This document shows, one piece after another, positions 14,599 to 30,267 of a stretch of DNA of 64,000 bases. Positions within the stretch are counted from its first letter, which is position 1; each line of letters opens with the position of its first letter. The notes below the pieces were generated by a model. It saw only the letters and a list, made by a program, of their open reading frames with translations, was not told where the DNA came from and made no database searches. This DNA is from Streptomyces sindenensis (GTDB lineage: Bacteria; Actinomycetota; Actinomycetes; Streptomycetales; Streptomycetaceae): NCBI RefSeq assembly GCF_014649035.1, contig NZ_BMSG01000016.1:1-64000 (forward strand), given 5' to 3'. The position numbers and the translations under genes were made by a program.

Positions 14599-15837
14599 TC
14601 AGGCGCGGTGTGCGCGGGGGCCGTGCAGGGCGCTGAGCACGGTCCGGCGGGTTCTGCGGACCACCCGCCGGGCGAAGGACGGGCGGGGCTCCCGCTGCGG
14701 CGCCTCGATCCGCCGTCCGCCGACCCATTCCGTGACGGTCACCTCGTAAGCGCTGTCGGGGAGCACCGAACCCTCGCCGAAGTGCGGGTAGGCGAGGTGC
14801 GGACGGCGCGGGTTTCCCCGGCGGACGATCTCGGGCTCCTTCTTGTCGCGCAGAAAGGCGGCGATGTCCAGGAGCAGGTCGAGCCGGCCGGCGGCGAGGC
14901 ACATCAGCCGCAGCCGTTCGTTCACCTTGAGGTTGCGGCCGAGCCCCGGTGTCCAGTACGCCCGCATGAGAGGGGCCGCGAGCGCCATCTTCCGCTCCTG
15001 GACCTTGGCCTTCTGCTTCACCAGTCCGGGCCCGAACTGCGGCAGCAGGGTGATGACGAAGGGACGCACCATCAGGGCGTCGCGCCGGGGGCCCGGGGGT
15101 ACGTACTCGGCGATGAGCCCCATGAGCGCGCGGGCCGAGTCGAAGCGGCGCTCGAAGCCGCCCTTCTTGGTCATCTGGTTGCGGTCCTCACGGCCCACCA
15201 GGTAGTAGCAGGTGTAGTCGGCGACGACGGAGATCCCGTTGCCGCGCAGATACGCCTCCATCGTGAACAGGGCGTCCTCGCCCGTCTTGAGCTTCTCGTC
15301 GAAGGCCATGCCGAGGCGTACGAGGAGGTCACGCCGGAACAGTTTCTGGGCGCTCAGGGTGAATTTGACGTTGGAGGAGTACAGGTCGGCGCGCTTGACG
15401 GTCTCTTTCCACATCGACTTCGCGGCACCGCGGTTGACGCCGACGATCTTCCCGAGCACCACGTCCGTACCCGCCCGGTCCCCCATGGCGACCATGCGCT
15501 CCAGGGCTTCCTCGCCGAAGTAGTCGTCCGCGTCGAGGAAGAAGACGTACCGGCCGCGGGCGAGGGCGAGACCCCGGTTGCGCGGGCCGCTGGGCCCACC
15601 GGAGTTCGGCTGCCGGACGACTCTCATGGGGATCGCGGTTCGGGCGGCGAATTCCTCCAGGCAGGCGCCCGTGCCGTCGGTGGAGCCGTCGTCGATCGCG
15701 ACGATCTCCATGCGGTCGGCGCCGATGGTCTGCGCCTCGACGGACTCCAGGCACCGGATCAGGTAGGGCATCGCGTCATATGCCCCGATGATCACACTGA
15801 CATCGGGCTCGTGGTTCTTCCTGGGCATGTCGGCCAT
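14599..15837 (-). CDS. GT2 family glycosyltransferase
   Basis: A 412-residue inverting glycosyltransferase of family GT2. The GT-A domain begins VSVIIGAYDAMPYLIRCLES, has the nucleotide-sugar region VAIDDGSTDGT and the metal-binding FFLDADDYFG, and continues with GEDALFTMEAYLR. The C-terminal 130 residues are basic and helical, likely for membrane contact. ATG 15837 is preferred, with AAGG upstream; GTG 15843 and ATG 15828 are alternatives. It lies between two teichoic acid polymerase-like genes and probably decorates or primes that polymer; donor and acceptor are unknown. Confidence 0.85.
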   Translation of the reverse strand: MADMPRKNHEPDVSVIIGAYDAMPYLIRCLESVEAQTIGADRMEIVAIDDGSTDGTGACLEEFAARTAIPMRVVRQPNSGGPSGPRNRGLALARGRYVFFLDADDYFGEEALERMVAMGDRAGTDVVLGKIVGVNRGAAKSMWKETVKRADLYSSNVKFTLSAQKLFRRDLLVRLGMAFDEKLKTGEDALFTMEAYLRGNGISVVADYTCYYLVGREDRNQMTKKGGFERRFDSARALMGLIAEYVPPGPRRDALMVRPFVITLLPQFGPGLVKQKAKVQERKMALAAPLMRAYWTPGLGRNLKVNERLRLMCLAAGRLDLLLDIAAFLRDKKEPEIVRRGNPRRPHLAYPHFGEGSVLPDSAYEVTVTEWVGGRRIEAPQREPRPSFARRVVRRTRRTVLSALHGPRAHRA

Positions 15838-15913
15838 GTGCACCTTGTCGATTTGATCATAAAAGAAGGCAGATTGCCCGACTATGCGATCTTTTGCTCA
15901 TCAACATGCCGAA

Positions 15914-16023: not shown

Positions 16024-18225
16024 TCAGCGCACGGACGAGGTCCCTTCGCTGAGAGCGGGCTCCGCCTCGCCCTCCGCCACGTCGGCCTCCAGGACGTCCG
16101 GGTCCGCCGTGGCGGCGGCCTCGGCGGCCGCCTGCGGATCGCCGGCCCCGGCGCCACTGGTGGCGGCCTCCGGGTCCGGCACCGCAACCGCCTGCTCACC
16201 GATGCGCTGGGCGACCGCCAGGTTACGGGCCTCGGCCTTGGCCGCCAGCGCCCGTACGGCGGCATTGAACTGCTCCATGGAAGTCGGCTCGTCCGGCCCC
16301 AGGAGGTAGGTCTTCAGCTCACGCCGGGCATCCGCCAGCGTGTCCGCCGCCGGGTCGGCCACCGCGGCCAGCAGGGCGTCGAGCTCCTCGGCGCCATTGG
16401 ACAGGATGACCGCGGCGCGCACCGCGGTGTTCTGCCGCTTGAACTCCTCGGCCCCGAGCGCGGCCGAGTCCGTGACCGCGTACGGCTTGCCGCTCGCGAT
16501 GAAGTCGGAGACCACACTGGAGATGTCCGAAACCATGGCGTCGGACTCGTTGAAGCAGTCGTACAGCTTGGGCTGCGCGCCGGTCACCGTACGGTGCTCC
16601 CACCAGCCGAAGGAGCGCCAGTAGGCATCGTTCCACTCCGCCCTCAGCCGTACGGTCTCTGCCTCGCGGACCGGGTCCGCGAGCGAGAGCCGCGACTCCT
16701 CCGCGTCGTCGCCGCCCGCGCGGCCGGTGGCCGCGAGCTGCGCGAGCCGCGCCTCGATCCGGGCGAGCTCGGCCTTGGCGGCGCTCTGCCCGGCGGCGGC
16801 CGACGATGCCTCCTTCGCCCAGCGGGGCTCCGCCGCGCGCTCGGCGGCGGCCTTCTCCAGCATGGCCCGGATCCGGGCGTTGACGGCCTTGGCCTTGGCG
16901 CTGCGGATGCCGGTGAACGGGTGCGGCTTGTAGATGATCCGGACCGGGTCGGCGGCGTTGAGCAGTCGGCGCACGATGTTCTCGCCCGCCAGCAGCAGGG
17001 AGGTGTTGCCCGGGTTGTCGTCCCAGCCCTCCCAGGTGGGCGCGTACAGCACGGTCGGGATGGGGTTCTTGATCGCACCCGTCCAGCTCTTGATGGGCTC
17101 CAGCTGCGGGCGCCCGACCTCGACGATGTCCTCGTCGCGGACCCCCACATCGGCCAGCGCGTACCGGTCGCGGCCGGCCCGGCCCGCCGTCCACACCTCG
17201 TCGTAGACCTTGGAGTAGGGGTTCACGCTGGCGAGCTTGTCGCTGTCGCCGTGCCCGATGAAGACGTGCTTCATGGTCGGGACGCGCAGGATGTGGATGT
17301 TCTTGCCCACGTTCGCCGGGTAGAGGCAGACCCGGACCGTGGAGAGGTCCAGGTTCATCAGGTGCGTCCCCGCGGGGACGCAGATCACCGGGACCGAGGT
17401 CTCGGCGAGCTGCGGGACGAGACCGCGCTCCCGCATGATGATCAGCGGACGGCCCTCGACCCGGCTCATGGTCTCCAGCCACATGTTGCCCTGGTAGGCG
17501 GACTCATTGGATCCGGAGAAGTAGAGCACCACGGTCGGCTGGTACTCACGCAGCCAGCTGTCGACGGCCTTGAGCACGGCGGGGGCCGGAGGAGCCAGCC
17601 TGCCGCGGCGCACGTACGGGAGCAGCAGCGCGAGGTAGAGCAGGGCCAGCAGCAGCGTCAGACCGATGCCCGCATAACCGACGACGTCCTCCCCGGTCCC
17701 GGCAGCGATCAGCACGCCCACCACCGCCGGAATGTCGAGGTGCAGCATCTTCTCCGCGGAGCGCCGCGTCAGCGCACCGGGCGGGGCGTCGGGGATACGA
17801 ACCGCGTGCAGGTCCACGTTGCGGGTGACCACCGGCATGGTGCGGCGAAGCCGGATGAGGGTCGCCATGGCCCCGTGCGGCGCCTGGAGCCCGTAGAAGA
17901 GCAGGAAGCAGGCCACCGCCGCGTAGAACAGCGGAGACTCGGCGAGATCCAGGCGGGCCAGCAGCAGGATGACCATCAACTGCCGGAGCAGGAAGCGGAT
18001 CGACAGCCCGGCCCGCACCTTGCCCAGGCGGTTGATCAGGTAGCTCCCCCGCTGGTGCAGATACCAGTCGGCGGCATACGTGACAGCGGTGGCCGCCGCG
18101 AAGAACCAGATGTGGGGAATGAGCGCGGCAAGCATGATGCAGGGATATCCCAGCCCCATCAACAAAGCTGCCGCCAGTTCCGACCTGCTGCCCACACGGG
18201 CCAGGCGAATGGCTGTCGAGATCAC
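16024..18225 (-). CDS. membrane-fused CDP-glycerol phosphotransferase-like protein
   Basis: A 733-residue two-part protein. The first 215 residues hold five or six hydrophobic helices (for example FFAAATAVTYAADW and VVGYAGIGLTLLLALLYLALL). The rest resembles the CDP-glycerol glycerophosphotransferase fold, with IGHGDSDK where the family usually has HGT, VLYAPTWEGWDD, IIYKPHPFTG and MVSDISSVVSDF. An Ala/Glu/Arg-rich segment (about residues 470-530) looks like a helical insertion, and the last 60 residues are Ala/Glu/Asp-rich. It lies after the CDP-polyol synthase-like gene and probably acts in teichoic acid polymerisation or linkage. The start ATG at 18225 is probable. Confidence 0.75.
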   Translation of the reverse strand: MISTAIRLARVGSRSELAAALLMGLGYPCIMLAALIPHIWFFAAATAVTYAADWYLHQRGSYLINRLGKVRAGLSIRFLLRQLMVILLLARLDLAESPLFYAAVACFLLFYGLQAPHGAMATLIRLRRTMPVVTRNVDLHAVRIPDAPPGALTRRSAEKMLHLDIPAVVGVLIAAGTGEDVVGYAGIGLTLLLALLYLALLLPYVRRGRLAPPAPAVLKAVDSWLREYQPTVVLYFSGSNESAYQGNMWLETMSRVEGRPLIIMRERGLVPQLAETSVPVICVPAGTHLMNLDLSTVRVCLYPANVGKNIHILRVPTMKHVFIGHGDSDKLASVNPYSKVYDEVWTAGRAGRDRYALADVGVRDEDIVEVGRPQLEPIKSWTGAIKNPIPTVLYAPTWEGWDDNPGNTSLLLAGENIVRRLLNAADPVRIIYKPHPFTGIRSAKAKAVNARIRAMLEKAAAERAAEPRWAKEASSAAAGQSAAKAELARIEARLAQLAATGRAGGDDAEESRLSLADPVREAETVRLRAEWNDAYWRSFGWWEHRTVTGAQPKLYDCFNESDAMVSDISSVVSDFIASGKPYAVTDSAALGAEEFKRQNTAVRAAVILSNGAEELDALLAAVADPAADTLADARRELKTYLLGPDEPTSMEQFNAAVRALAAKAEARNLAVAQRIGEQAVAVPDPEAATSGAGAGDPQAAAEAAATADPDVLEADVAEGEAEPALSEGTSSVR

Positions 18226-18361: not shown

Positions 18362-19861
18362 TTACACATCTGCTTGACGGTCCAGCACGGAGGCCAGAGC
18401 CTGCTCGAAGCCCGAGGACTCGGCGGCGCCCGCCGTCGGGTCCTGCTGCCGTACGTCGATGACGTGGCCGGTCAGCTCGGAGAGCAGGACGTCCAGCGAG
18501 GTGCGCGCGACGGCCTCCGAGGAGAGCAGCGAGCCCTCGGGCTCCTGGCCGAACGCCTTGGTCCGCATCGGGGTCGCGGTGCGCTCCGGGTTCACGCAGT
18601 TGACCCGGATGCCCTCGCCCGCCCACTCGTCGGCGAGCGCCTGGGTGAGGTTGACCATGGCGGCCTTGGTGGAGGAGTAGAGGCTGTACTCGGCACGGCC
18701 CCGGGTGTAGCTGCTGGAGGTGTAGAGCAGCAACTGGCCCTGGGTCTCCGCCAGGTACTTGTACGAGGCGCGGGCGATCTGCACGGGGGCCAGGTAGTTG
18801 ACGTTCAGCGCTTCCTGGATCGTCGTGTTGTCGGTCTCGGCCAGCTTGCCGATCCGCAGCACGCCCGCGGTGTTGATGACGTAGTCGATGCGGCCGGTCT
18901 CGCCGTACGCCTTGGAGAGCGCGTCGTCCACGTGCTCCGGGTTCTCGACGTGCGTCCCCGTGGTGGAGCGGCCCAGCGCGTAGACCTTCGCGCCGTAGCT
19001 CTCGGCGAGGGCGGCGATGTCGGCGCCGATGCCGTACGAACCGCCGAAGACGACAAGGGTCTTGCCCGTGAGCAGCTCGCGGTAGGCGGCCTCGTCGGCC
19101 TGGCGCGGGGCGGCGGTGGAGGCCAGCTGGAAGAGCTTGTCGGTGATGAAGACGTCGACCGGCTGGGTCACCTTCATGTTGTACTCGTCGCCCGCGACCA
19201 CGAAGATCGGCACGTCGGGGAGGTACTTGAGGACCACCGAACAGTCGTCGGTGGCCTGGAAGTTGGGGTCTCCCGCCGCGACCTCGTACGCCCTGCGGAT
19301 CGTGGACAGCTTGAAGGCCTGCGGCGTCTGCCCGCGGCGCAGCCGGGAGCGGTCGGGCACGTCGGTGATGAACTCGCCGTCCTCACCGTGCGTACGGGTC
19401 ACGATGATCGTGTCCGCGGACGGGATGGCGACGTCGACGGCCTGGTAGCGCTCCAGCGCGTCGACGCAGTCCTTGATCACACGCTGTGACAGCAGGGGGC
19501 GGACCGCGTCATGGAAGAGGACGTTGCGGTCCTCGCCCTCGGCGAGGCCCTCGCCGAGGGCGGCGATGGCGCGCTCGGTGGTCTCGTTGCGGGTGTTGCC
19601 GCCCTCGATGATCCGGGTGACCTTGCTCAGTCCGGCCTTGGCGACGATCTTCTCGACGTCGGGGACGAAACCGGGCGCCATCAGCACGATGACGTCGTCG
19701 ATGCCCTCGGCGTTCTCGAAGATGGTCAGCGTGTGCTCGATGACGGCCTTGCCGGCGATCTTCAGCAGCTGCTTGGGGATCGAGAGGCCCACGCGCTGGC
19801 CGGTCCCACCGGCGAGCACGACCGCTGTGGTCCGGGGCTTGGCTTCATGCGGCACAGACAC
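18362..19861 (-). CDS. bifunctional cytidylyltransferase/SDR (CDP-ribitol synthase-like)
   Basis: A 499-residue fusion. Residues 1-245 are an IspD/TarI-like cytidylyltransferase, with AVVLAGGTGQRVG, PKQLLKIAGK and LFHDAVRP. Residues about 255-490 are a short-chain dehydrogenase, with VVFGGSYGIGADIA, NTAGVL and the active-site YSSTKAAM. This order matches the bifunctional Bcs1/Acs1-type enzymes of Haemophilus, which reduce ribulose 5-phosphate and make CDP-ribitol. Poly(ribitol phosphate) precursor supply is therefore inferred; another polyol is possible. The GTG start at 19861 follows GGTAGG. It is first in the minus-strand teichoic acid locus. Confidence 0.8.
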   Translation of the reverse strand: MSVPHEAKPRTTAVVLAGGTGQRVGLSIPKQLLKIAGKAVIEHTLTIFENAEGIDDVIVLMAPGFVPDVEKIVAKAGLSKVTRIIEGGNTRNETTERAIAALGEGLAEGEDRNVLFHDAVRPLLSQRVIKDCVDALERYQAVDVAIPSADTIIVTRTHGEDGEFITDVPDRSRLRRGQTPQAFKLSTIRRAYEVAAGDPNFQATDDCSVVLKYLPDVPIFVVAGDEYNMKVTQPVDVFITDKLFQLASTAAPRQADEAAYRELLTGKTLVVFGGSYGIGADIAALAESYGAKVYALGRSTTGTHVENPEHVDDALSKAYGETGRIDYVINTAGVLRIGKLAETDNTTIQEALNVNYLAPVQIARASYKYLAETQGQLLLYTSSSYTRGRAEYSLYSSTKAAMVNLTQALADEWAGEGIRVNCVNPERTATPMRTKAFGQEPEGSLLSSEAVARTSLDVLLSELTGHVIDVRQQDPTAGAAESSGFEQALASVLDRQADV

Positions 19862-22643: not shown

Positions 22644-23240
22644 GTGAACTACAGGGTCCAGCCCACCGCCCAGGTCGACGAGACCGCCGAGATCGGGGAC
22701 GGCTCCAGTGTCTGGGAGCTGGCGCAGATCCGTGAGGGAGCGAAGCTCGGCGAGGGCTGCGTCGTCGGCCGCGGCGCGTACGTCGGCACCGGCGTGCGCA
22801 TCGGTGACAACGTGAAGCTGCAGAACTACGCCCTCGTGTACGAGCCGGCCGAGCTCGGCGACGGCGTCTTCGTGGGCCCCGCCGTCGTCCTCACCAACGA
22901 CCACAACCCGCGGTCGGTCGACCCTGACGGCAAGCAGAAGCGCGGCGGCGACTGGGAGGCGGTCGGCGTGAAGGTCGCCGAGGGCGCCTCACTCGGCGCC
23001 CGCTCGGTCTGCGTCGCACCGGTCCGTATCGGCCGGTGGGCGATGGTCGCGGCCGGCGCCGTGGTCACCAAGGACGTGCCGGACTTCGCCCTGGTCGTCG
23101 GCGTGCCCGCGCGGCAGATCGGCTGGGTCGGGCGGGCCGGAGTACGGCTGGCCGAGCGGTCGGCCGAGCCGGGCGTGTGGGAGTGCCCGCAGAGCGGGAC
23201 GCTGTACGACGAGAAGGACGGCGTGCTGTCCGAGCGTTGA
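22644..23240 (+). CDS. hexapeptide-repeat N-acetyltransferase, WbpD-like
   Basis: A 198-residue left-handed beta-helix acyltransferase. Hexapeptide repeats start near residue 10 (VDETAEIGDGSSVW) and run to IGRWAMVAAGAVVTKDV; the catalytic-type His is in LTNDHNPRS. It resembles WbpD/WlbB, which acetylates the 3-amino group of UDP-GlcNAc(3NH2)A. After the repeats a short tail with CPQSG suggests an extra knuckle. The GTG start at 22644 follows GAAAGG. It faces the five-gene glycan operon, ending 82 bp from its last gene, and starts divergently from rplU. It supplies the acetylation step for that operon's pathway. Confidence 0.82.
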   Translation: MNYRVQPTAQVDETAEIGDGSSVWELAQIREGAKLGEGCVVGRGAYVGTGVRIGDNVKLQNYALVYEPAELGDGVFVGPAVVLTNDHNPRSVDPDGKQKRGGDWEAVGVKVAEGASLGARSVCVAPVRIGRWAMVAAGAVVTKDVPDFALVVGVPARQIGWVGRAGVRLAERSAEPGVWECPQSGTLYDEKDGVLSER

Positions 23241-23266
23241 GAGGGGCTCCGCGAGATGGCGGAGCG

Positions 23267-23310
23267 CACGGTGGGGGCGGGCGTCCCGCGGGACGCCCGC
23301 CCCCACCGTG
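23267..23310. terminator. bidirectional terminator, 20-bp palindromic arms
   Basis: The 20 bases 23267-23286 are perfectly complementary to 23291-23310 (outer sequence CACGGTGGGGG), with a minimal CGCG centre. It lies between the convergent stops of the acetyltransferase (23240) and the dehydrogenase (23323), and so can end both transcripts. Confidence 0.85.
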
Positions 23311-23322
23311 TCCTCGGACGGC

Positions 23323-24606
23323 TCAGCCGCCGATGACGACGCGGCGCACGCCCGCCCAGTTGGCCGGGTCCGTCGTGCGGCGGCCGTCGACCAGGACGCG
23401 GACGTCCGGGAGGTCGGCGGCGGACAGCTCGCGGTACTCGGCGTGGTCGGCCTGGAGGATCGCGGCGGTGACGGTCTGGCCCTCGTGCGGGACGAGGCCC
23501 AGCGCGGTCAGCTCCTCAGGCGTGTACATCGGGTCCGAGACGAACGGCACCGCGCCCCGCGCCTTCAGCGCCTCGACGACGCCGAAGACACCGGAGAACG
23601 CGGTCTCCTTGACACCGCCGCGGTAGGCCGCGCCCAGCACCACGACCCCGGCGCCGTCCAGGTCGCCGTAGGCGGCGGCCAGGAGATCCACGGCGTAGGC
23701 CGGCATCGCGGCGTTGGCCTCACGGGCCGAACGCACGACGGTCGCCTCCGGGTCGTTCCACAGGTACATCCGCGGGTAGATCGGGATGCAGTGGCCGCCC
23801 ACGGCGATGCCGGGCTGGTGGATGTGGCTGTAGGGCTGGCTGTTGCAGGCCTCGATGACCTTCTTGACGTCGATGTCGTTCCGGTCGGCGAACCGGGCGA
23901 ACTGGTTGGCCAGACCGATGTTGACGTCGCGGTAGGTGGTCTCGGCGAGCTTCGCCAGCTCGGAGGCCTCTGCCGTACCGAGGTCCCAGACGCCGTTCGC
24001 GCGGGGCAGGTCCTCGCGCTCGTCGAAGTCGAGGACGGCCTCGTAGAAGGCGACGCCTGCGGCGGAGGACGCCTCGTCGATGCCGCCGACGAGCTTGGGG
24101 TAGCGGCGCAGGTCGGCGAAGACCCGGCCGGTGAGCACCCGCTCCGGCGAGAAGACCAGGTGGAAGTCCTCACCGGGGGTGAGGCCCGAACCCTCGGCCA
24201 GCATCGGCGCCCAGCGGGTACGGGTGGTGCCGACCGGCAGCGTGGTCTCGTAGCTGACCAGGGTGCCGGGCTTCAGGCCGGCCGCGATGGCCTTGGTGGC
24301 GGCGTCCATCCAGCCGAAGTCCGGGGTGCCCTCGGCGTCCACGAAGAGCGGGACGACGACCACGACGGCGTCGGACGCGGCGACCGCGGCCGTGGTGTCC
24401 GTCGTCGCGGAGAGCAGGCCCGCGCCGACCGTCTCCTTCAGCTTGACGTCCAGGTCGTGCTCGCCGGGGAACGGCTCGGTGGCCGCGTTGACGAGTTCGA
24501 CGACCTTCTCGTTGACGTCCGCGCCGATGACCTTGTGGCCCTTGGCCGCGAACTGCACGGCGAGCGGAAGCCCGATCTTGCCGAGCGCGACTACACAGAT
24601 GTTCAT
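23323..24606 (-). CDS. UDP-sugar 6-dehydrogenase (WbpA/WecC-like)
   Basis: A 427-residue nucleotide-sugar dehydrogenase. The NAD-binding Rossmann fold starts MNICVVALGKIGLPLA, the central domain has TTYRDVNIGLANQFA, and the catalytic cysteine is in GGHCIPIYP (Cys about 273). It should oxidise C6 of a UDP-HexNAc, most likely UDP-GlcNAc to UDP-GlcNAcA, given the oxidoreductase, aminotransferase and acetyltransferase beside it. It starts 5 bp after the GT2 stop and is the last gene of the operon. UDP-glucose or UDP-ManNAc as substrate cannot be excluded from sequence alone. Confidence 0.85.
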   Translation of the reverse strand: MNICVVALGKIGLPLAVQFAAKGHKVIGADVNEKVVELVNAATEPFPGEHDLDVKLKETVGAGLLSATTDTTAAVAASDAVVVVVPLFVDAEGTPDFGWMDAATKAIAAGLKPGTLVSYETTLPVGTTRTRWAPMLAEGSGLTPGEDFHLVFSPERVLTGRVFADLRRYPKLVGGIDEASSAAGVAFYEAVLDFDEREDLPRANGVWDLGTAEASELAKLAETTYRDVNIGLANQFARFADRNDIDVKKVIEACNSQPYSHIHQPGIAVGGHCIPIYPRMYLWNDPEATVVRSAREANAAMPAYAVDLLAAAYGDLDGAGVVVLGAAYRGGVKETAFSGVFGVVEALKARGAVPFVSDPMYTPEELTALGLVPHEGQTVTAAILQADHAEYRELSAADLPDVRVLVDGRRTTDPANWAGVRRVVIGG

Positions 24607-24611
24607 CGGGG

Positions 24612-26231
24612 TTACTTCCTCTTCGACCTGGACAGCGTTCGGCGCAGCCGTGCGCCGACGCCGGACTTCGGTTCCCGCAGGGGGGCCGTCGTGATCACGA
24701 GACGGCCTTTGGTGTTGGTGGTCGCTGCCACGCGGTGGGGCTCGTCGCTCCCCCAGCGGCGTGCCAGCGGCATCGGCTGCCCTTCGGTGCGGACCGGGAC
24801 CTCGTACGTCGAGCCGGCCACGTCCACGTAGAGCCGGACGCCTCTCTTGGACCGGGTGGCCGCCAGCGGGATGCGGGCGGTCAGCAGGGTGCCGCCGTCC
24901 TGGGCGGCGTCGGCGGTGAGTGTGCCGGCGCGCCGGGGGCGCGGGGCGTCCGCCGGCAGCTTGCGCGCACCGGCCTTGTCGGCGCTCTGGGGCATAGCCC
25001 TCTGGGCCAGGGCGACGACGGCGGAGGAGGTGTCACCGGTGATGCCGACCCGCAGCTTCACGACGCAGGACAGCTCCGTGCCGTGCTGGTCCCAGTCGGC
25101 CGACTCCAGGCGCGTACCGGCGGAGAGGCGGCCGGTCACCGTCTCGCCGAGCACCTCGTAATAGCGGTCGTCGAGGCCGACGGCCGGGTCCCTGAATCCG
25201 GGGTAGGTGGCGAAGGCGCGGTCACCCTCCAGCAGAAAGGGCGGCGCTCCGTGCTCCGTCTCCTCCGCGATGGCGCGGGTGAGCTCCTCGACGGCGCGGC
25301 TGCGGGCGAGGCCGAAGCGCACCCGGCGCTTGACCCCGGTGCCGTCGCGCAGGCCGTCGGTGAAGTAGGCGTCCACCAGTGCACCCACGCCGTCGCACAC
25401 CTGACGCCGCGTGTCGAGGTCGAGCGCGGGGAAGTCCTGCTGGAGCAGCTTGGACAGTTCCCAGTCGAAGTGGCGCTTGAGTACGGCGTCGCGCTGCGGC
25501 CCCGCAGGGATCAGACCGGCCGTGTGCTCGATGATCCGCTCGACGCAACGGAGCCTCGCCAGGTGGTTCGCCCGGTAGGTGATGTTGCTGGCGTCGCCGC
25601 GCTTGACCGCGTAGTAGCAGGTGTAGTCGGAGACGACGGAGATCCTCCGGGCCCGTACGCACGCCTCGATGGTGAAGGGCTGGTCGCTGCCGACCGGCAT
25701 GTCCTCAGGGAAGCGGAGGCTGTGCTTCTCCACCAGCTCACGGCGGAAGAGCTTGGTGTTGGCCAGGGTGAAGGGCAGCGCCGAGTCGTAGAGGCTGATG
25801 TCGGGGTGGTTCCCGTCGTACAGCTTCTGGTGGACGTACCGGCCGTTCGTGCCGACCATCTTCCCGACGACCACGTCGGACCCGTTCGCGTCGGCGGCGG
25901 AGACCATCCGCTCCAGCGCCTCTTCGCCGAGGTGGTCGTCCGCCCCTATGAAGTAGACGAAACGGCCGGTGGCCACGTCCAGCGCCCGGTTGCTGGGCGC
26001 GGCGGGGCCTCCCGAGTTCGGCTGGTGGAGCACCTTCACCACGTCGGGGTAGCGCTCGGCGTACCGGTCGAGTTCGGCACCGCTCCCGTCGGTCGATCCG
26101 TCGTCGACGGCCACGACCTCCAGCCGCTCCAGGCCGATGCTCTGCCGGATCAGCGAGTCCAGGCACTCCGTGAGGTACGGCATGGTGTTGTAGACGGCGA
26201 CGACGACGGTGACGTCGGGCTCTCGTCTCAT
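24612..26231 (-). CDS. GT2 family glycosyltransferase
   Basis: A 539-residue glycosyltransferase. The N-terminal GT-A domain runs from VTVVVAVYNTMPYLTECLDS through VAVDDGSTDGS to the metal site FIGADDHLGEEAL and GSDQPFTIEACVR. The last 200 residues are beta-rich and end in a very basic tail, RRTLSRSKRK, fitting a membrane-near role. It resembles the GT2 at 14599-15837 in its GT-A domain. Its ATG at 26231 overlaps the upstream GT4 stop by 4 bp (ATGA), so it is translationally coupled. It likely transfers a sugar made by this operon to a cell-wall glycan. Confidence 0.85.
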   Translation of the reverse strand: MRREPDVTVVVAVYNTMPYLTECLDSLIRQSIGLERLEVVAVDDGSTDGSGAELDRYAERYPDVVKVLHQPNSGGPAAPSNRALDVATGRFVYFIGADDHLGEEALERMVSAADANGSDVVVGKMVGTNGRYVHQKLYDGNHPDISLYDSALPFTLANTKLFRRELVEKHSLRFPEDMPVGSDQPFTIEACVRARRISVVSDYTCYYAVKRGDASNITYRANHLARLRCVERIIEHTAGLIPAGPQRDAVLKRHFDWELSKLLQQDFPALDLDTRRQVCDGVGALVDAYFTDGLRDGTGVKRRVRFGLARSRAVEELTRAIAEETEHGAPPFLLEGDRAFATYPGFRDPAVGLDDRYYEVLGETVTGRLSAGTRLESADWDQHGTELSCVVKLRVGITGDTSSAVVALAQRAMPQSADKAGARKLPADAPRPRRAGTLTADAAQDGGTLLTARIPLAATRSKRGVRLYVDVAGSTYEVPVRTEGQPMPLARRWGSDEPHRVAATTNTKGRLVITTAPLREPKSGVGARLRRTLSRSKRK

Positions 26232-27808
26232 GCCATCACCTGGGAGTCCGGCTGTTGCGTCTTCACCGGCTCGGCACCGGTGAGACGCGTGTACACGTCG
26301 TCCAGGACCTCGGCCTGCGCCTCCCAGGTCCAGTTCTCCAGCAGGCCTTCGCGGGCGTAGGCGGCGCGGTACTTCGCCGGGTCGGCGAGCACCGACTTGA
26401 CCGCCCGTACGTAGTCGGAGACGTCCTCGGCGGTGAACACCTCGCCCTGACCGGTCCGGGCGACCATCTCCCCCATCGTCTTGACGTCACTCACGACGAA
26501 CGGCAGACGGGCGTGGGAGTACTCGAAGAACTTGGTGATCAGGGCGATCTCGTGGTTCGGCCAGTGGTGGATCGGGATGACGCCCACACTGGCCGCGGAC
26601 AGGAACGGGACCACCTGGTAGTGCGGCACGTACGGGAGGATGTGCAGCCGGTCCGAGACTCCCAGTTCGGCGGCTCGTTCCTTGAGTTCCTGCATGTAGG
26701 CCGAGTTCGGCCGCAGGACGACGAAGGCCACGTGCGTACCGGGGAGCTGGGGCAGCCCCTCGACCATGATGTCCAGACCCCGCTGCGGGGCCGCGGCACC
26801 GCTGTAGACCGCCAGCGGAACGTCCGGGCCGATACCGCACAGCTCACGCAGGTCGGGCACCGGCTCCGCGGCCTGCTCCGCGGAGACCTCGGCGTCCGGG
26901 GCGTTCAGCACGACCTCCGGCAGGGTCTTCAGACCGTGGCGCTCGACCAGCATCTCCGCCAGGGTGCCGGAGACCGTGGTGACGGCGTCGGCGTACTTGG
27001 CGTACTCCCGCTCGTGCCCGCACTGGGCGATGTGCCAACGCGGGTGCGGGTTCCACGGCTTGATGCCGGGCAGGAACTCGTGCACGTCCCAGAGGAGCTT
27101 GACCTTGCGGCCCTTGGCCTCGGCGCGCAGCTTCGCCCGCGCGCCCACGCCGAGCATCCGGAAGTCGTTCGCGTGGATCACGTCGGGTTCGAGCCGGTCG
27201 ATGACCTTCCCGTACGCCAGCTCGAAGTCCCACAGGGCCGGGTCGAGACGCCGCCAAGCCCGGTCGCCCATGGTGCGGACCCAGAAGGCCGTGGTGAAGC
27301 GGTCCAGCGGGGAGTCCATGCTCTTGCGGCGGTGCGCGAGCGCCTCCGTGCGGCCGGCCCGGAAGCCGACCCATTTGCTCAGCGCCTTCGCCAGCAGACG
27401 CGGGGGCACCAGACGCGCGACACCGAGCGAGGAACCCTTGCGCTTGGCCTCCACGCTTCGGACGTTCAGCTCGGCGCGCCACGCCTTCATCCGCTGCTTG
27501 CGGTATTCCGCGAGCGGACCGGGCGGATACGCGAGAGGCGAGCGCAGAACAGCCCTGCGGTACTCGTGACGGCGCCGGTGCATGGGCGTGGGCACATGCA
27601 GCAGGCGGACCTCGGCATCGCCGAGCCACCACTTCTGGGACTTCTTGGTGGGCGACTTGCCCAGAAGCACCACGTCCCACCCGGCCTCCGCCGCCGAGCG
27701 GGCTTCCTTCTGCACCCGGGAATCGCCGTTGACGCCGTTGTCGACGAGCATGACGATCTTTCCCCGGGGACTACGCTCCGGCCTCGCGGCCGAGCTGTCA
27801 TTCGCCAT
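26228..27808 (-). CDS. GT4 family glycosyltransferase
   Basis: A 526-residue GT-B retaining glycosyltransferase. The N-terminal domain begins KIVMLVDNGVNGDSRVQKEA, and the C-terminal domain has VYSGAAAPQRGLD and KFFEYSHARLPFVVSD, containing the nucleotide-binding E-x7-E-like region. A basic insertion near residues 90-200 (KWVGFRAGRTEALAHRRKS) is unusual. ATG 27808 overlaps the end of the oxidoreductase gene by 11 bp, with AGGAGAG upstream. It is the third gene of the operon and is likely to build a repeating unit with the GT2 that follows. Confidence 0.82.
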   Translation of the reverse strand: MANDSSAARPERSPRGKIVMLVDNGVNGDSRVQKEARSAAEAGWDVVLLGKSPTKKSQKWWLGDAEVRLLHVPTPMHRRRHEYRRAVLRSPLAYPPGPLAEYRKQRMKAWRAELNVRSVEAKRKGSSLGVARLVPPRLLAKALSKWVGFRAGRTEALAHRRKSMDSPLDRFTTAFWVRTMGDRAWRRLDPALWDFELAYGKVIDRLEPDVIHANDFRMLGVGARAKLRAEAKGRKVKLLWDVHEFLPGIKPWNPHPRWHIAQCGHEREYAKYADAVTTVSGTLAEMLVERHGLKTLPEVVLNAPDAEVSAEQAAEPVPDLRELCGIGPDVPLAVYSGAAAPQRGLDIMVEGLPQLPGTHVAFVVLRPNSAYMQELKERAAELGVSDRLHILPYVPHYQVVPFLSAASVGVIPIHHWPNHEIALITKFFEYSHARLPFVVSDVKTMGEMVARTGQGEVFTAEDVSDYVRAVKSVLADPAKYRAAYAREGLLENWTWEAQAEVLDDVYTRLTGAEPVKTQQPDSQVMA

Positions 27809-28817
27809 GGCGGGCAGGCTCTCCTGTCTCGAATACAACGGTCTGGCCACGGTTGGCCGAGTCGAGCAGCGATGTCGCCACCTCGACGGTACGCAGCCCC
27901 TGCCGCAGCGTGCAGATGTCGGCGGGCTTGCCCTGCACAGCGTCGCGGAACAGCTCGTGCTCGACAAGCAAGGGCTCGCGCTTGGGGATGGCGTAGCGGA
28001 TCATGTCGCCCTCGGCGACCCCGCGGAACGCGCGCAGCGCCTCCCATTCGGTGGCGACGGCGGCGTTCGAGTGGAACGTGAGGTCGGCGGTGAGGGTGTC
28101 GGCGATGAAGCAGCCGCGCTCGCCGGTGACCGAGGTGAATCGTTCCTTGAGCGGGCTCAGCCAGTTGACCAGGTGGTTGACCATCGTGCCGTCGGACAGC
28201 TGGCCCACCGCGGAGACCATGTCCTCGTGGGGGCGGCCCGACTTGGAGACGGTGTGCGCCGCGATGGACGTGTACGTCTGGCCGGTGACCCAGGCGGTCA
28301 GGTCGATGTCGTGGGTGGCCAGGTCCTTGACCACACCGACGTCGGCGATCCGGTGGGGGAAGGGGCCCTGGCGGCGGGTGACGACCTGGTAGACGTCGCC
28401 CAGCTCACCGGCCTCCAGGCGGGCGCGGAGCGAGAGCAGCGCGGGGTTGCAGCGTTCGATGTGACCGACGCCTGCGACCAGGCCGCGCGACTCGAAGGCG
28501 TCCACGAGGCGGTGGGCGCCCTCGACGGTGTCGGCGAGCGGCTTCTCGATCAGGGCGCCGACGCCGGCCTCCGCGAGCTGGAGGCCGACCTCCTCATGCA
28601 GCGCGGTCGGGCAGGCCACGACGGCGTAGTCGATGCCGAGGGCGATGAGCTCCTCGACGGTGGAGAGCACGGGTGCGCCCTGGGCCCAGCCGTTCTTGTC
28701 ACCCATCGGGTCGACGACGCCGACCAGTTCGACGCCCTCCAGGCTCGCGAGGACACGGGCGTGGTGGCGGCCCATGGAGCCGAGGCCGACGAGCCCGGCC
28801 TTGAGTACGGCGGTCAC
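27798..28817 (-). CDS. Gfo/Idh family oxidoreductase, WbpB-like
   Basis: A 339-residue NAD-dependent oxidoreductase. The Rossmann motif GLVGLGSMGRHHARVL is at the N-terminus, the family EKP motif occurs in ALIEKPLADT, and the C-terminal domain has DLATHDIDLTAWVTGQ. In the WbpB/WlbA family the enzyme oxidises C3 of UDP-GlcNAcA to a 3-keto sugar for the aminotransferase. The GTG start at 28817 overlaps the DegT stop as GTGA, so the two are coupled in the order expected for such a pair. Inositol- or other sugar-specific relatives have a similar fold, so the substrate rests on the neighbours. Confidence 0.83.
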   Translation of the reverse strand: MTAVLKAGLVGLGSMGRHHARVLASLEGVELVGVVDPMGDKNGWAQGAPVLSTVEELIALGIDYAVVACPTALHEEVGLQLAEAGVGALIEKPLADTVEGAHRLVDAFESRGLVAGVGHIERCNPALLSLRARLEAGELGDVYQVVTRRQGPFPHRIADVGVVKDLATHDIDLTAWVTGQTYTSIAAHTVSKSGRPHEDMVSAVGQLSDGTMVNHLVNWLSPLKERFTSVTGERGCFIADTLTADLTFHSNAAVATEWEALRAFRGVAEGDMIRYAIPKREPLLVEHELFRDAVQGKPADICTLRQGLRTVEVATSLLDSANRGQTVVFETGEPARHGE

Positions 28818-29932
28818 AGGTTCTCCCCGAGGGCGTTCACAGCGGTGACGATGCGCTCCAGGTCTCCCTGGGTGAGCGAGGGGTGGACGGGCAGCGAGAC
28901 GACCTCGGCGGCGGCCTTCTCGGTCTCGGGCAGGTCCCAGGTACGGCCCGCCTTCTGGTCCGGCTCCCAGTAGGGCTTCAGACGGTGGATCGGCGTCGGG
29001 TAGTAGACCGCGTTGCCGACGCCCGCCTCGGTGAGCTTCGCCATCGCGGCGTCCCGGTCGCCCTGGATGCGCACGGTGTACTGGTGGTAGATGTGCCGCG
29101 CGCCCTCGGCGACCGGCGGCGTGGTGATGGCCGGGGCGGTGATGTGGGCGTCGAGGTACGCGGCGTTGGCGCGGCGCTGCTCGGTCCAGCCTTCCAGCTT
29201 GCCGAGCTGTACGCGGCCGACGGCGGCGGACACGTCGGTCATCCGCATGTTGGCGCCGACGATCTCGTTGGCGTAGCGCTGCTCCATGCCCTGGTTGCGC
29301 AACAGGCGCAGGGTGCGTGCCAGTTCGGCGTCGGCCGTGGAGACCATGCCGCCTTCGAGGGAGTGCATGTTCTTGGTCGGGTAGAAGCTGAAGGTGCCGC
29401 CGGCGCCGAACGCTCCGACCGGGGTTCCGTTGAGCGCCGCCGCGTGGGCCTGGCAGGCGTCCTCGACCACGGCGAGGCCGTGCTTCTGCGCGATGGGCAT
29501 GAGCTTGTCCATCGCGGCGGGGTGACCGTAGAGGTGCACCGGCATGATCGCGGCGGTGCGCGGCGTGATCGCGGCTTCGACAGCGGCCGGGTCGAGACCG
29601 AAGCTGCCGGGCTCGATGTCGGCGAACACCACGTCGGCGCCGACCAGGCGGACGACGTTGGCGGAGGCAGCGAAGGAGAAGGAGGGGACGATCACCTCGT
29701 CGCCGGGGCCGATGCCCAGGGCGAGCAGCAGCAGGTGCAAGGCCGAGGTACCCGAGTTCACGGCCACGCAGTGCCGGCCGTCGACCAGGTGCGAGAAGCC
29801 TTCCTCGAAGGCCGCGACTTCCGGGCCCTGGACGACGCGGCCGCTGCGCAGTACGCGTACGGCCGCTTCGATCTCGTCTTCCCCGATGACCGGACGGGCA
29901 GCGGGAATCGGCTGCTCGTTGATGCTCGTCAT
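28814..29932 (-). CDS. DegT/DnrJ/EryC1 aminotransferase, WbpE-like
   Basis: A 372-residue PLP-dependent sugar aminotransferase. The cofactor lysine lies in FYPTKNMHSLEGGM (Lys about 187), VVEDACQAHAA supplies the Asp that contacts PLP, and NSGTSALHLLL is the phosphate-binding stretch. With the oxidoreductase, it fits WbpE-type amination of the 3-keto sugar using glutamate. ATG 29932 follows a perfect AGGAGG with six bases between; ATG 29938 would abut the ribosome site. It is first in the operon, after a low-GC intergenic region with the likely promoter. Confidence 0.85.
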   Translation of the reverse strand: MTSINEQPIPAARPVIGEDEIEAAVRVLRSGRVVQGPEVAAFEEGFSHLVDGRHCVAVNSGTSALHLLLLALGIGPGDEVIVPSFSFAASANVVRLVGADVVFADIEPGSFGLDPAAVEAAITPRTAAIMPVHLYGHPAAMDKLMPIAQKHGLAVVEDACQAHAAALNGTPVGAFGAGGTFSFYPTKNMHSLEGGMVSTADAELARTLRLLRNQGMEQRYANEIVGANMRMTDVSAAVGRVQLGKLEGWTEQRRANAAYLDAHITAPAITTPPVAEGARHIYHQYTVRIQGDRDAAMAKLTEAGVGNAVYYPTPIHRLKPYWEPDQKAGRTWDLPETEKAAAEVVSLPVHPSLTQGDLERIVTAVNALGENL

Positions 29933-30267
29933 GGACATCCTCCTTGAACACCGCAAGAGCTCGTTACCAGGCAGAGCTTTTGAGGTGCGGGACGCCCCAC
30001 GAGGTCGCGCTTAACCCCACCGGCGCAATGCCGACGCCCTGCCGAGGGATCCGGCCCGATCGATGGCGTCGCGGGCCGTGTCACCGTCCGTAGTTTTCGT
30101 GAAGAACGATCACACGTACGGCAACCGTCGTCACATTATCAGGGATTTCTTAACGCATTTCGGTCTCGTTAACCCACTTATGCATCAGTTCTGAAACAAA
30201 GCAGGTGTCCCGCCCCTATGTGCTCGGAGCGGGACACCCTGAAGATGAACGAACGGTTACCCATTCA
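29933..30267. other. low-GC intergenic region before the glycan operon
   Basis: This 335-bp gap has clearly lower GC than its surroundings (for example ATTATCAGGGATTTCTTAAC around 30134). It lies upstream of the DegT aminotransferase gene and downstream of rne, so it should contain the operon promoter and the rne terminator (30204-30238). On the minus strand TAATGT around 30140 is a possible -10 element, without a convincing -35. No gene is visible in it. Confidence 0.5.
30204..30238 (-). terminator. rne terminator
   Basis: GGTGTCCCGC at 30204-30213 is complementary to GCGGGACACC at 30229-30238, loop 15 bases, 30 bp past the rne stop. An A/U-rich stretch follows in the minus-strand transcript (GCTTTGTTTCAG), so it looks like an intrinsic terminator. 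Confidence 0.75.

What the first reader, a model, noticed from the sequence alone, without database searches (positions are those of the whole stretch)
22644..29932. Glycan cassette between rplU and rne encodes a diacetamido-uronic acid pathway
A WbpA-like UDP-sugar dehydrogenase, WbpB-like oxidoreductase, WbpE-like aminotransferase and WbpD-like acetyltransferase surround two glycosyltransferases. In known systems these four activities convert UDP-GlcNAc to UDP-GlcNAc(3NAc)A. Five of the genes form a coupled minus-strand operon (overlaps or 5-bp gap) with the acetyltransferase convergent on it. It sits between ribosomal and RNA-processing core genes. The WbpI-type 2-epimerase is absent here, so either the gluco isomer is used or the epimerase is elsewhere. 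A wall polymer with a diacetamido uronic acid is inferred.
Basis: partly seen in the sequence, partly recalled or inferred. Interest (0 to 1): 0.75.

Follow-up and report, generated by a model that had tools for sequence, protein, structure and literature searches.

The report
Streptomyces wall-sugar (teichuronic acid) gene cassette
This is the six-gene version of a recently described Streptomyces gene set that decorates the cell wall with a rare charged sugar polymer; its gene content predicts a simpler polymer than the best-studied one, on a surface that rival bacteria's protein toxins can recognise.

Summary
In detail: six glycan genes fill the gap between rplU and rne. The cassette is a utr locus, described by Zhao et al. 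(Cell 2025, PMC13274773) as making a teichuronic-acid-like (TUA) polymer on ribitol wall teichoic acid, a receptor for S. coelicolor umbrella toxins. The five shared genes are 86-96% identical to those of an S. griseus, and TarS-like UtrC keeps the catalytic Asp (window D183). The window's genome has no PF02350 2-epimerase and no UtrG match, so the gluco sugar GlcNAc3NAcA is predicted, perhaps as an uncapped homopolymer. Added here: UtrC orthologues are in 48 of 295 Streptomyces genomes, and in all 24 measurable ones lie between rplU and rne. In the 65 of 80 named loci that reach utrJ or rplU, a GT4 gene between utrB and utrC (called gt4K here) mostly replaces the 2-epimerase (26 GT4 only, 31 epimerase only, 5 both, 3 neither), on repeated lineages. 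In other Streptomyces the rplU-rne gap can hold dTDP-rhamnose-type cassettes, so it looks like a swap site for wall-glycan genes. Open: the sugar and linkage that gt4K makes. I have no chemistry for this strain.

The parts
22644..23240 (+). utrJ: hexapeptide-repeat N-acetyltransferase (WbpD/WlbB type); predicted to acetylate the 3-amino group of UDP-GlcNAc3NA
   Evidence: Best solved structure 3mqg/3mqh, E 1.9e-45; 94% identical to the utrJ of S. griseus L047
23267..23310 (.). 44-nt perfect palindrome in the 82-nt gap between convergent utrJ and utrD; likely two-way terminator
   Evidence: Sequence; RNA fold of 23241-23325 -72.6 kcal/mol, z -7.15; role inferred
23323..24606 (-). utrD: NDP-sugar 6-dehydrogenase (WbpA role), predicted UDP-GlcNAc to UDP-GlcNAcA
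   Evidence: PF03721/PF00984/PF03720; TIGR03026 over cut-off; 96% to S. griseus utrD
24612..26231 (-). utrC: TarS-like GT2 with TarS linker domain; predicted to put the first GlcNAc3NAcA on ribitol phosphate
   Evidence: PF00535, PF22181; TarS 5tze E 1.3e-54 with profile; D183 = S. griseus D181, invariant in 33 of 33 aligned
26228..27808 (-). gt4K (name used here): GT-B/GT4-type glycosyltransferase in the utrB-utrC slot; predicted TUA-chain-extending enzyme
   Evidence: PF00534/PF13692/PF13439; model pLDDT 82, GT4 neighbours; S. griseus UtrG query finds nothing in L031-L034, whose slot gene is 91-98% identical to gt4K
27798..28817 (-). utrB: Gfo/Idh/MocA 3-dehydrogenase (WbpB/WlbA role)
   Evidence: PF01408; best NCBIfam model NF040723 UDP-GlcNAc 3-dehydrogenase, 192.6 bits, below its cut-off of 450; 93% to S. 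griseus utrB
28814..29938 (-). utrA: DegT/DnrJ/EryC1/StrS aminotransferase (WbpE role); ATG at 29938 or, with better-placed GGAGG, 29932
   Evidence: PF01041 E 1.7e-121; 96% to S. griseus utrA, a gene hit by umbrella-toxin resistance mutations
11613..14417 (-). TagF-like polyol-phosphate polymerase (wall teichoic acid context)
   Evidence: PF04464 E 2.4e-106
14599..15843 (-). Second TarS-like GT2 among the teichoic acid genes (40% to UtrC)
   Evidence: PF00535, PF22181; row G000:C16:14710-15813
16024..18225 (-). Large protein with a marginal Glyphos_transf match (teichoic acid context)
   Evidence: PF04464 24.3 bits, cut-off 22.1
18362..19861 (-). TarIJ-type fusion (IspD-like cytidylyltransferase + SDR), predicted CDP-ribitol supply for the acceptor
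   Evidence: PF01128 and PF00106; the paper names TarIJ and TagF near L21/L27 in S. griseus

Best explanation
This is a minimal utr (teichuronic-acid-like, TUA) locus. UtrD, UtrB, UtrA and UtrJ convert UDP-GlcNAc to UDP-GlcNAc3NAcA (6-oxidation, 3-oxidation, 3-transamination, N-acetylation). UtrC, a TarS-like enzyme, puts the first beta-GlcNAc3NAcA on ribitol phosphate of the wall teichoic acid made by the neighbouring TarIJ/TagF genes. The second glycosyltransferase, gt4K, then extends the chain. With no PF02350 2-epimerase found in the genome and no utrE, F, G, H or I in the locus, the chain should contain only the gluco isomer: most simply a GlcNAc3NAcA homopolymer like that of S. antibioticus but without the 4-O-acetyl cap. 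Shown here: gene content, orthology, synteny, absence of PF02350. Shown by others in relatives: UtrC dependence, TUA-WTA structure and umbrella-toxin receptor role. Inferred: every enzyme step in this strain, the donor and linkage of gt4K, and the homopolymer.
For: Shared genes 86-96% identical to S. griseus NCTC13033 utrA/B/C/D/J. UtrC: TarS profile match 1.3e-54, catalytic Asp aligned with the tested D181, invariant in 33 of 33 aligned. UtrJ: only PDB sequence under 1e-30 is 3mqg/3mqh, recalled as WlbB. Pathway order as in P. aeruginosa (PMC10622841, abstract and introduction passages). No PF02350 in own genome; no UtrG match; no UtrI in the locus, a 36% relative elsewhere. rplU/rpmA/obg/TarIJ/TagF neighbourhood as in the paper. 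S. antibioticus lacks utrE, F, H and makes a beta-1,4 GlcNAc3NAcA homopolymer. Locus survey: gt4K in the B-C slot mostly replaces utrH (26 gt4K only, 5 both, 31 utrH only, 3 neither, of 65); on an rne tree 7 independent pairs, on average 6.3 same way, 0 opposite, 0.7 without difference, median p 0.031; 0 of the 36 utrH loci among the 65 lack a further GT4/TarM-like gene beyond UtrC and the slot.
Against: No chemistry for this strain. The paper calls its pathway speculative. UtrA matches a transaminase labelled glutamine--scyllo-inositol (7b0d, 299 bits) and 2oga (267) better than WbpE (237), so WbpE identity rests on context. UtrB matches WbpB 3o9z only at 8e-5. gt4K's nearest structures are GT4-type enzymes such as SPS, GlgM, MshA and BshA, which I recall as retaining; that would give alpha links from a UDP-alpha donor, whereas the S. 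antibioticus chain is beta. I could not obtain the S. antibioticus locus, so I do not know whether its 'UtrG' is gt4K. 5 of 65 loci have both gt4K and utrH and 3 neither, so the exclusion is not strict. The own-genome UtrG search had no positive control in that call.
Confidence: 0.8

Rival explanations
1. Same locus, but gt4K transfers a housekeeping sugar (such as GlcNAc, Glc or GalNAc), so the product is a heteropolymer or a short branch on ribitol rather than a GlcNAc3NAcA homopolymer.
For: gt4K has a GT4-type fold; in S. griseus alternate residues are GalNAc; UtrC is the only other GT in the cassette and could itself add more than one residue (inference).
Against: The only donor-making genes in the cassette make a diacetamido uronic acid; no 4-epimerase in the locus; S. 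antibioticus, also without utrE, F, H, makes a homopolymer.
Confidence: 0.25
2. The polymer contains ManNAc3NAcA, with the 2-epimerisation done by an enzyme outside PF02350 or missed in the draft assembly.
For: S. griseus, a close relative, makes the manno isomer; the assembly is a draft in 101 contigs.
Against: PF02350 absent in two searches, completeness 99.99%; 11 of 26 UtrC-positive genomes in the 150-genome set also lack any PF02350 match at 1e-20; UtrG, the predicted ManNAc3NAcA transferase, was not found.
Confidence: 0.07
3. The sugar enzymes serve a secreted glycoside or other polymer rather than wall teichoic acid decoration.
For: UtrA resembles aminotransferases of other sugar pathways; single-strain chemistry is missing.
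Against: TarS-like UtrC with the TarS linker and catalytic Asp, teichoic acid genes next to it, and loss of the wall glycan in utrC deletions of two relatives.
Confidence: 0.04

Closest known systems
utr (TUA) locus of S. griseus (utrA-J), Zhao et al. Cell 2025, PMC13274773
   Same: Same neighbourhood (L21/L27 and TarIJ/TagF per the paper); orthologous utrA, B, C, D, J (86-96% identity to S. griseus NCTC13033); UtrC catalytic Asp
   Different: Window lacks utrE, F, G, H, I and an umbA next to utrJ; has a GT4 (gt4K) between utrB and utrC that the S. griseus locus lacks
utr locus of S. anulatus (named in the paper; NRRL B-2873 = L034 here)
   Same: Same six-gene order and content, 89-98% identity; the paper's text says the S. 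anulatus cluster lacks predicted epimerase and O-acetyltransferase genes
   Different: None seen in gene content; polymer structure not reported in the sections read
S. antibioticus NRRL B-1701 TUA
   Same: No utrE, F, H; predicted same sugar; homopolymer of beta-1,4 GlcNAc3NAcA on ribitol phosphate
   Different: Has utrI and a 4-O-acetyl cap; its second GT is called utrG and could not be compared (sequence not reached)
Wbp/Wlb pathway of P. aeruginosa and Bordetella
   Same: Four activities leading to UDP-GlcNAc3NAcA; UtrJ closest to 3mqg, recalled as WlbB
   Different: No WbpI epimerase; product goes to a Gram-positive wall, not LPS; UtrB nearer the UDP-GlcNAc 3-dehydrogenase model NF040723 than WbpB

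Membership tests
utr/TUA locus (Zhao et al. 2025) | utrA-B-C-D core plus utrJ, orthologous to S. griseus | tested here: met
   96, 93, 86, 96, 94% identity
utr/TUA locus (Zhao et al. 2025) | Position at rplU/rpmA next to TarIJ/TagF | tested here: met
utr/TUA locus (Zhao et al. 2025) | UtrC TarS-like with catalytic Asp (D181 in S. griseus) | tested here: met
   D183; invariant in 33 of 33 aligned; TarS match
utr/TUA locus (Zhao et al. 2025) | S. griseus genes utrE-utrI | tested here: not met
   None in the locus; the paper treats genes outside a core as variable between species, so this is not taken as excluding membership
utr/TUA locus (Zhao et al. 2025) | TUA-WTA polymer on the wall; umbrella-toxin receptor | not testable with these tools
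   Needs NMR and binding or killing assays
UDP-ManNAc3NAcA (Wbp) pathway | 6-dehydrogenase, 3-dehydrogenase, 3-aminotransferase, N-acetyltransferase | tested here: met
   Family matches; WbpE and WbpB identity by homology alone is not exclusive
UDP-ManNAc3NAcA (Wbp) pathway | WbpI-type 2-epimerase (PF02350) | tested here: not met
   0 in the genome; so it is not filed as a full ManNAc3NAcA pathway and is predicted to stop at the gluco isomer
B. subtilis tua teichuronic acid operon | TuaD-type UDP-glucose dehydrogenase | tested here: not met
   NF047673 78.7 bits against cut-off 700
GT4 retaining glycosyltransferases (gt4K) | EX7E motif in the C-terminal domain (motif recalled) | tested here: inconclusive
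   gt4K 34 of 34 have Glu at -9 (EX8E) and Ile at -8; UtrF 31 of 32 have EX7E; UtrG (60% or more) 30 of 30 have neither

The most novel reading that the evidence does not exclude
The slot between utrB and utrC holds an interchangeable polymerase that helps decide which diacetamido uronic acid a Streptomyces displays: gt4K builds a GlcNAc3NAcA-only chain (possibly with links unlike the S. antibioticus beta-1,4 polymer, since gt4K looks like a GT4 enzyme with an altered EX8E motif), and swapping it against UtrG-type enzymes plus the 2-epimerase switches the wall from gluco to manno chains. This happened repeatedly between close relatives at rplU-rne, a site that in other Streptomyces holds dTDP-rhamnose-type cassettes and so would act as a serotype-like switch site under pressure from lectin-guided toxins.
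Probability: 0.35. Interest if true: 0.68.

Novelty: new member of a known kind. Interest (0 to 1): 0.45.

Why it matters
Umbrella toxins choose prey by lectins, at least some of which read TUA. If gene content predicts TUA structure, the susceptibility of many sequenced Streptomyces could be forecast from the rplU-rne interval. The window's cassette is the smallest version seen here (6 genes), so it is the easiest place to establish which enzyme sets the sugar and the link. The survey gives a rule that the paper's text does not state in the sections read: in the 65 loci examined the 2-epimerase always comes with a further glycosyltransferase, and a slot GT4 mostly replaces it. It also suggests that rplU-rne is an exchange site for wall-glycan genes in general.

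Tried and rejected
Epimerase elsewhere in the genome: searched with PF02350, none. gt4K as S. griseus UtrG: rejected, since the S. griseus UtrG query finds nothing in L031-L034 or in the own genome, while UtrG relatives at 60% or more are recognised in other loci. utrE and utrF were looked for only in the locus, not in the whole own genome. UtrC structure prediction: poor in the GT domain (pLDDT under 50 for residues 108-221), so its fold match (TarS, RmlT) is only supporting; the sequence profile is the stronger result. Spread beyond the genus: the order-level draw of 147 genomes held 5 genera with matches at 1e-60 in one; the 105 genomes listed were all of the window's genus, 42 were not listed, so little can be said. 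First gene-caller run missed overlapping genes in many loci; replaced, and counts use. Promoter scan: 0 found, 0.3 expected. Named and unnamed-genome loci partly come from the same genomes, so their counts are given apart.
Full report
What is there. Five minus-strand genes (aminotransferase, oxidoreductase, GT4, GT2, dehydrogenase) are coupled with overlaps of 4, 11 and 4 nt and one 5-nt gap; the acetyltransferase runs towards them, and the 82 nt between the two stop codons hold a 44-nt perfect palindrome, folding far better than shuffles (z -7.15), most likely a two-way terminator (inferred). rplU-rpmA-obg lie on one side and rne on the other. Further down the same strand are a TarIJ-type fusion, a protein with a marginal TagF-family match, a second TarS-like GT2 and a clear TagF.

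What it is. Full-text search for Streptomyces, teichuronic acid and diacetamido gave one paper: Zhao et al., Cell 2025, PMC13274773. I read its abstract and sections 8, 9, 10, 14, 35, 37 and 45, and searched passages; figures and supplements were not seen. It describes utrA-J of S. griseus: mutations in that cluster are prevalent in clones resistant to S. coelicolor umbrella toxins; deletion of utrC removes a polymer of GalNAc and ManNAc3NAcA that is joined through GlcNAc3NAcA to ribitol phosphate; S. antibioticus, lacking utrE, F and H, makes a beta-1,4 GlcNAc3NAcA homopolymer with a 4-O-acetyl end. The fetched S. griseus NCTC13033 locus (L047; not the paper's NBRC 13350) has the gene order the paper gives, ending in a FG-GAP-repeat protein where the paper places umbA. 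The window's genes are 96% (utrA), 93% (utrB), 86% (utrC), 96% (utrD) and 94% (utrJ) identical to it. UtrC carries the TarS linker domain, matches S. aureus TarS at 1.3e-54 by profile, and its D183 aligns with D181, whose change to Asn abolished toxin sensitivity in S. griseus; D183 is invariant in 33 of 33 aligned orthologues (32 of the 80 named loci plus the window). So this is a utr locus. S. anulatus, named in the paper as lacking the epimerase and O-acetyltransferase genes, has the same six genes as the window in strain NRRL B-2873 (L034).

The four sugar enzymes. UtrJ's best solved relative is 3mqg/3mqh (1.9e-45), which I recall as WlbB; PMC10622841 cites the WlbB structure for this step. 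UtrB's best NCBIfam model is UDP-GlcNAc 3-dehydrogenase, at 192.6 bits against a cut-off of 450; WbpB itself (3o9z) is a weak match. UtrA matches 7b0d and 2oga better than WbpE. UtrD is an NDP-sugar dehydrogenase over the TIGR03026 cut-off. By homology alone the substrates would be uncertain; the orthology to utr genes with a known class of product makes the assignment much firmer. The order of steps is that of P. aeruginosa (PMC10622841, abstract and introduction passages seen).

Gluco or manno. PF02350 has no member in the window's genome (0 of 1 at 0.001; again none at 1e-20), with 11 of 14 control genomes ringing. In a 150-genome Streptomyces set, 26 have UtrC orthologues, of which 15 have a PF02350 protein and 11 have none; 44 of the 124 others have one. 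The genome also shows no UtrG, and its only UtrI match is a 36% relative on another contig. The prediction is therefore GlcNAc3NAcA only, without the utrI-type cap. A S. griseus-type UmbA is not found except for two weak FG-GAP matches (the query was a 267-aa piece, so this does not exclude umbrella toxins).

How widespread, and where. UtrC orthologues (63% identity or more over 523 or more residues) are in 48 of 295 genomes of the genus, own included (the next best match is 46%). In the 150-genome subset rplU was found in 149 and rne in 144. Both lie on one contig in 131: 24 UtrC-positive genomes have 8.9-29.5 kb between the rplU and rne matches, with utrC between them in 24 of 24, and 107 negative ones have a median of 1.36 kb, which includes about 1.1 kb of rne itself in the window. 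Nineteen genomes with a missing or split pair were dropped, two of them UtrC-positive (G062, G126). Of the 107, 25 exceed 2.5 kb; I looked at 12. One (L161) holds utrA, B, D, G, F and J without a UtrC orthologue. Five (L162-L166) hold RmlA, RmlB and RmlC relatives; those of L163 pass their NCBIfam cut-offs, the others are 73-99% identical to them; L162-L165 also have a UtrC-like GT2 (33-40%), L166 has none. L167 has a lone UtrC-like GT2 (41%), L168 a TagF, L170 a GalU, and L169, L171 and L172 no glycan gene that I recognised. So rplU-rne is an insertion site that is often, not only, used for wall-glycan genes.

The locus grammar. From 80 named loci (80 best of 195 encoding stretches, biased to close relatives) the maps show a fixed core, rne-utrA-utrB-[slot]-utrC-utrD-[variable]-utrJ-rplU. 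utrA, B, C and D are in 80 of 80, rne is directly upstream in 70, cut off in 9, and not within 7.9 kb in one (L076, whose upstream region carries other sugar-enzyme-like genes); utrJ faces the core in 63 of 66 annotated copies. The slot is empty, holds gt4K, or holds two GT4s. Of 80 loci, 65 reach utrJ or rplU (15 cut by contig or fetch ends were dropped): gt4K without utrH 26, gt4K with utrH 5, no gt4K with utrH 31, neither 3 (Fisher p 4e-10, which ignores kinship). In the separate even draw, 45 of 47 unnamed-genome loci give 23, 1, 19 and 2 in the same order (this set shares genomes with the named one; one further UtrC-positive genome, G276, on a short contig was not fetched). All 5 named loci with both carry yet another GT, and none of the 36 utrH loci lacks a GT4/TarM-like gene beyond UtrC and the slot gene. 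On a quick tree of rne DNA from 71 rows the slot state needs at least 8 changes on well-supported branches (19 on the best tree, against 23.4 in shuffles, reached by about 22 of 500 shuffles), so the slot is swapped often among close relatives; of 7 independent pairs, 6.3 on average go the same way (gt4K present, utrH absent), none the other way, median p 0.031, range 0.016-0.063. Loci with utrE, utrG and utrF but no utrH (L035, L037, L116) fit a GalNAc-GlcNAc3NAcA repeat, a structure the paper cites for Streptomyces sp. VKM Ac-2537. The strictly six-gene form is seen in 7 of 29 complete named loci and 8 of 34 complete unnamed-genome loci, own included.

What gt4K does. It is the open point. 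The model (pLDDT 82) is a GT-B fold nearest to GT4-type enzymes such as SPS, GlgM, MshA and BshA. All 34 checked orthologues have Glu at position -9 from the conserved Glu, not -8; UtrF, predicted by the paper to make alpha links, has the usual EX7E in 31 of 32; UtrG at 60% or more, predicted to make beta links, has neither (30 of 30). Donor and anomeric form thus cannot be read from sequence. By analogy with S. antibioticus a beta-1,4 homopolymer is most likely; by fold an alpha-linked chain is possible.

Novelty. The kind is in print since late 2025. A search for umbrella toxin, Streptomyces and teichuronic ranked only that paper as holding all three, and a whole-word search for rplU, rne, Streptomyces and glycosyltransferase found none, in an open-licence library only. 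The slot/epimerase exclusion, the genus-wide spacing and the dTDP-rhamnose alternatives at the same site were not in the sections of the paper that I read; its Fig. 3C, which I could not see, may show part of it.

Noticed in passing
   Followed up: partly
   Followed up: partly
window 14599-15843: A second TarS-like GT2 with TarS linker among the teichoic acid genes, 40% identical to UtrC; it may decorate the same teichoic acid with another sugar.
   Followed up: partly
window 23267-23310: A 44-nt perfect palindrome without a T-run between convergent utrJ and utrD, probably a two-way terminator.
   Followed up: yes
L035, L037, L116: Loci with utrE, diverged utrG (63-65%) and utrF (51-53%) but no 2-epimerase in the fetched stretch: predicted GalNAc-GlcNAc3NAcA polymer.
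   Followed up: no
L043, L044, L059, L064, L073, L078, L089-L091, L102, L103, L106: Further GT combinations (two GT4s in the slot, or gt4K plus utrF/utrG) suggest several more TUA types than the two solved.
   Followed up: partly
L036, L037, L039, L047, L067, L115, L116, L143: FG-GAP proteins similar (39-100%) to the protein at the S. griseus umbA position sit near utrJ in these loci; none was found beside utrJ in the window.
   Followed up: partly
L076, 1-7852: The one named locus in which rne is not just upstream of utrA; 7.9 kb upstream carry two matches to utrE at 30% and a GT2 instead, perhaps a second cassette inserted at the same site.
   Followed up: no
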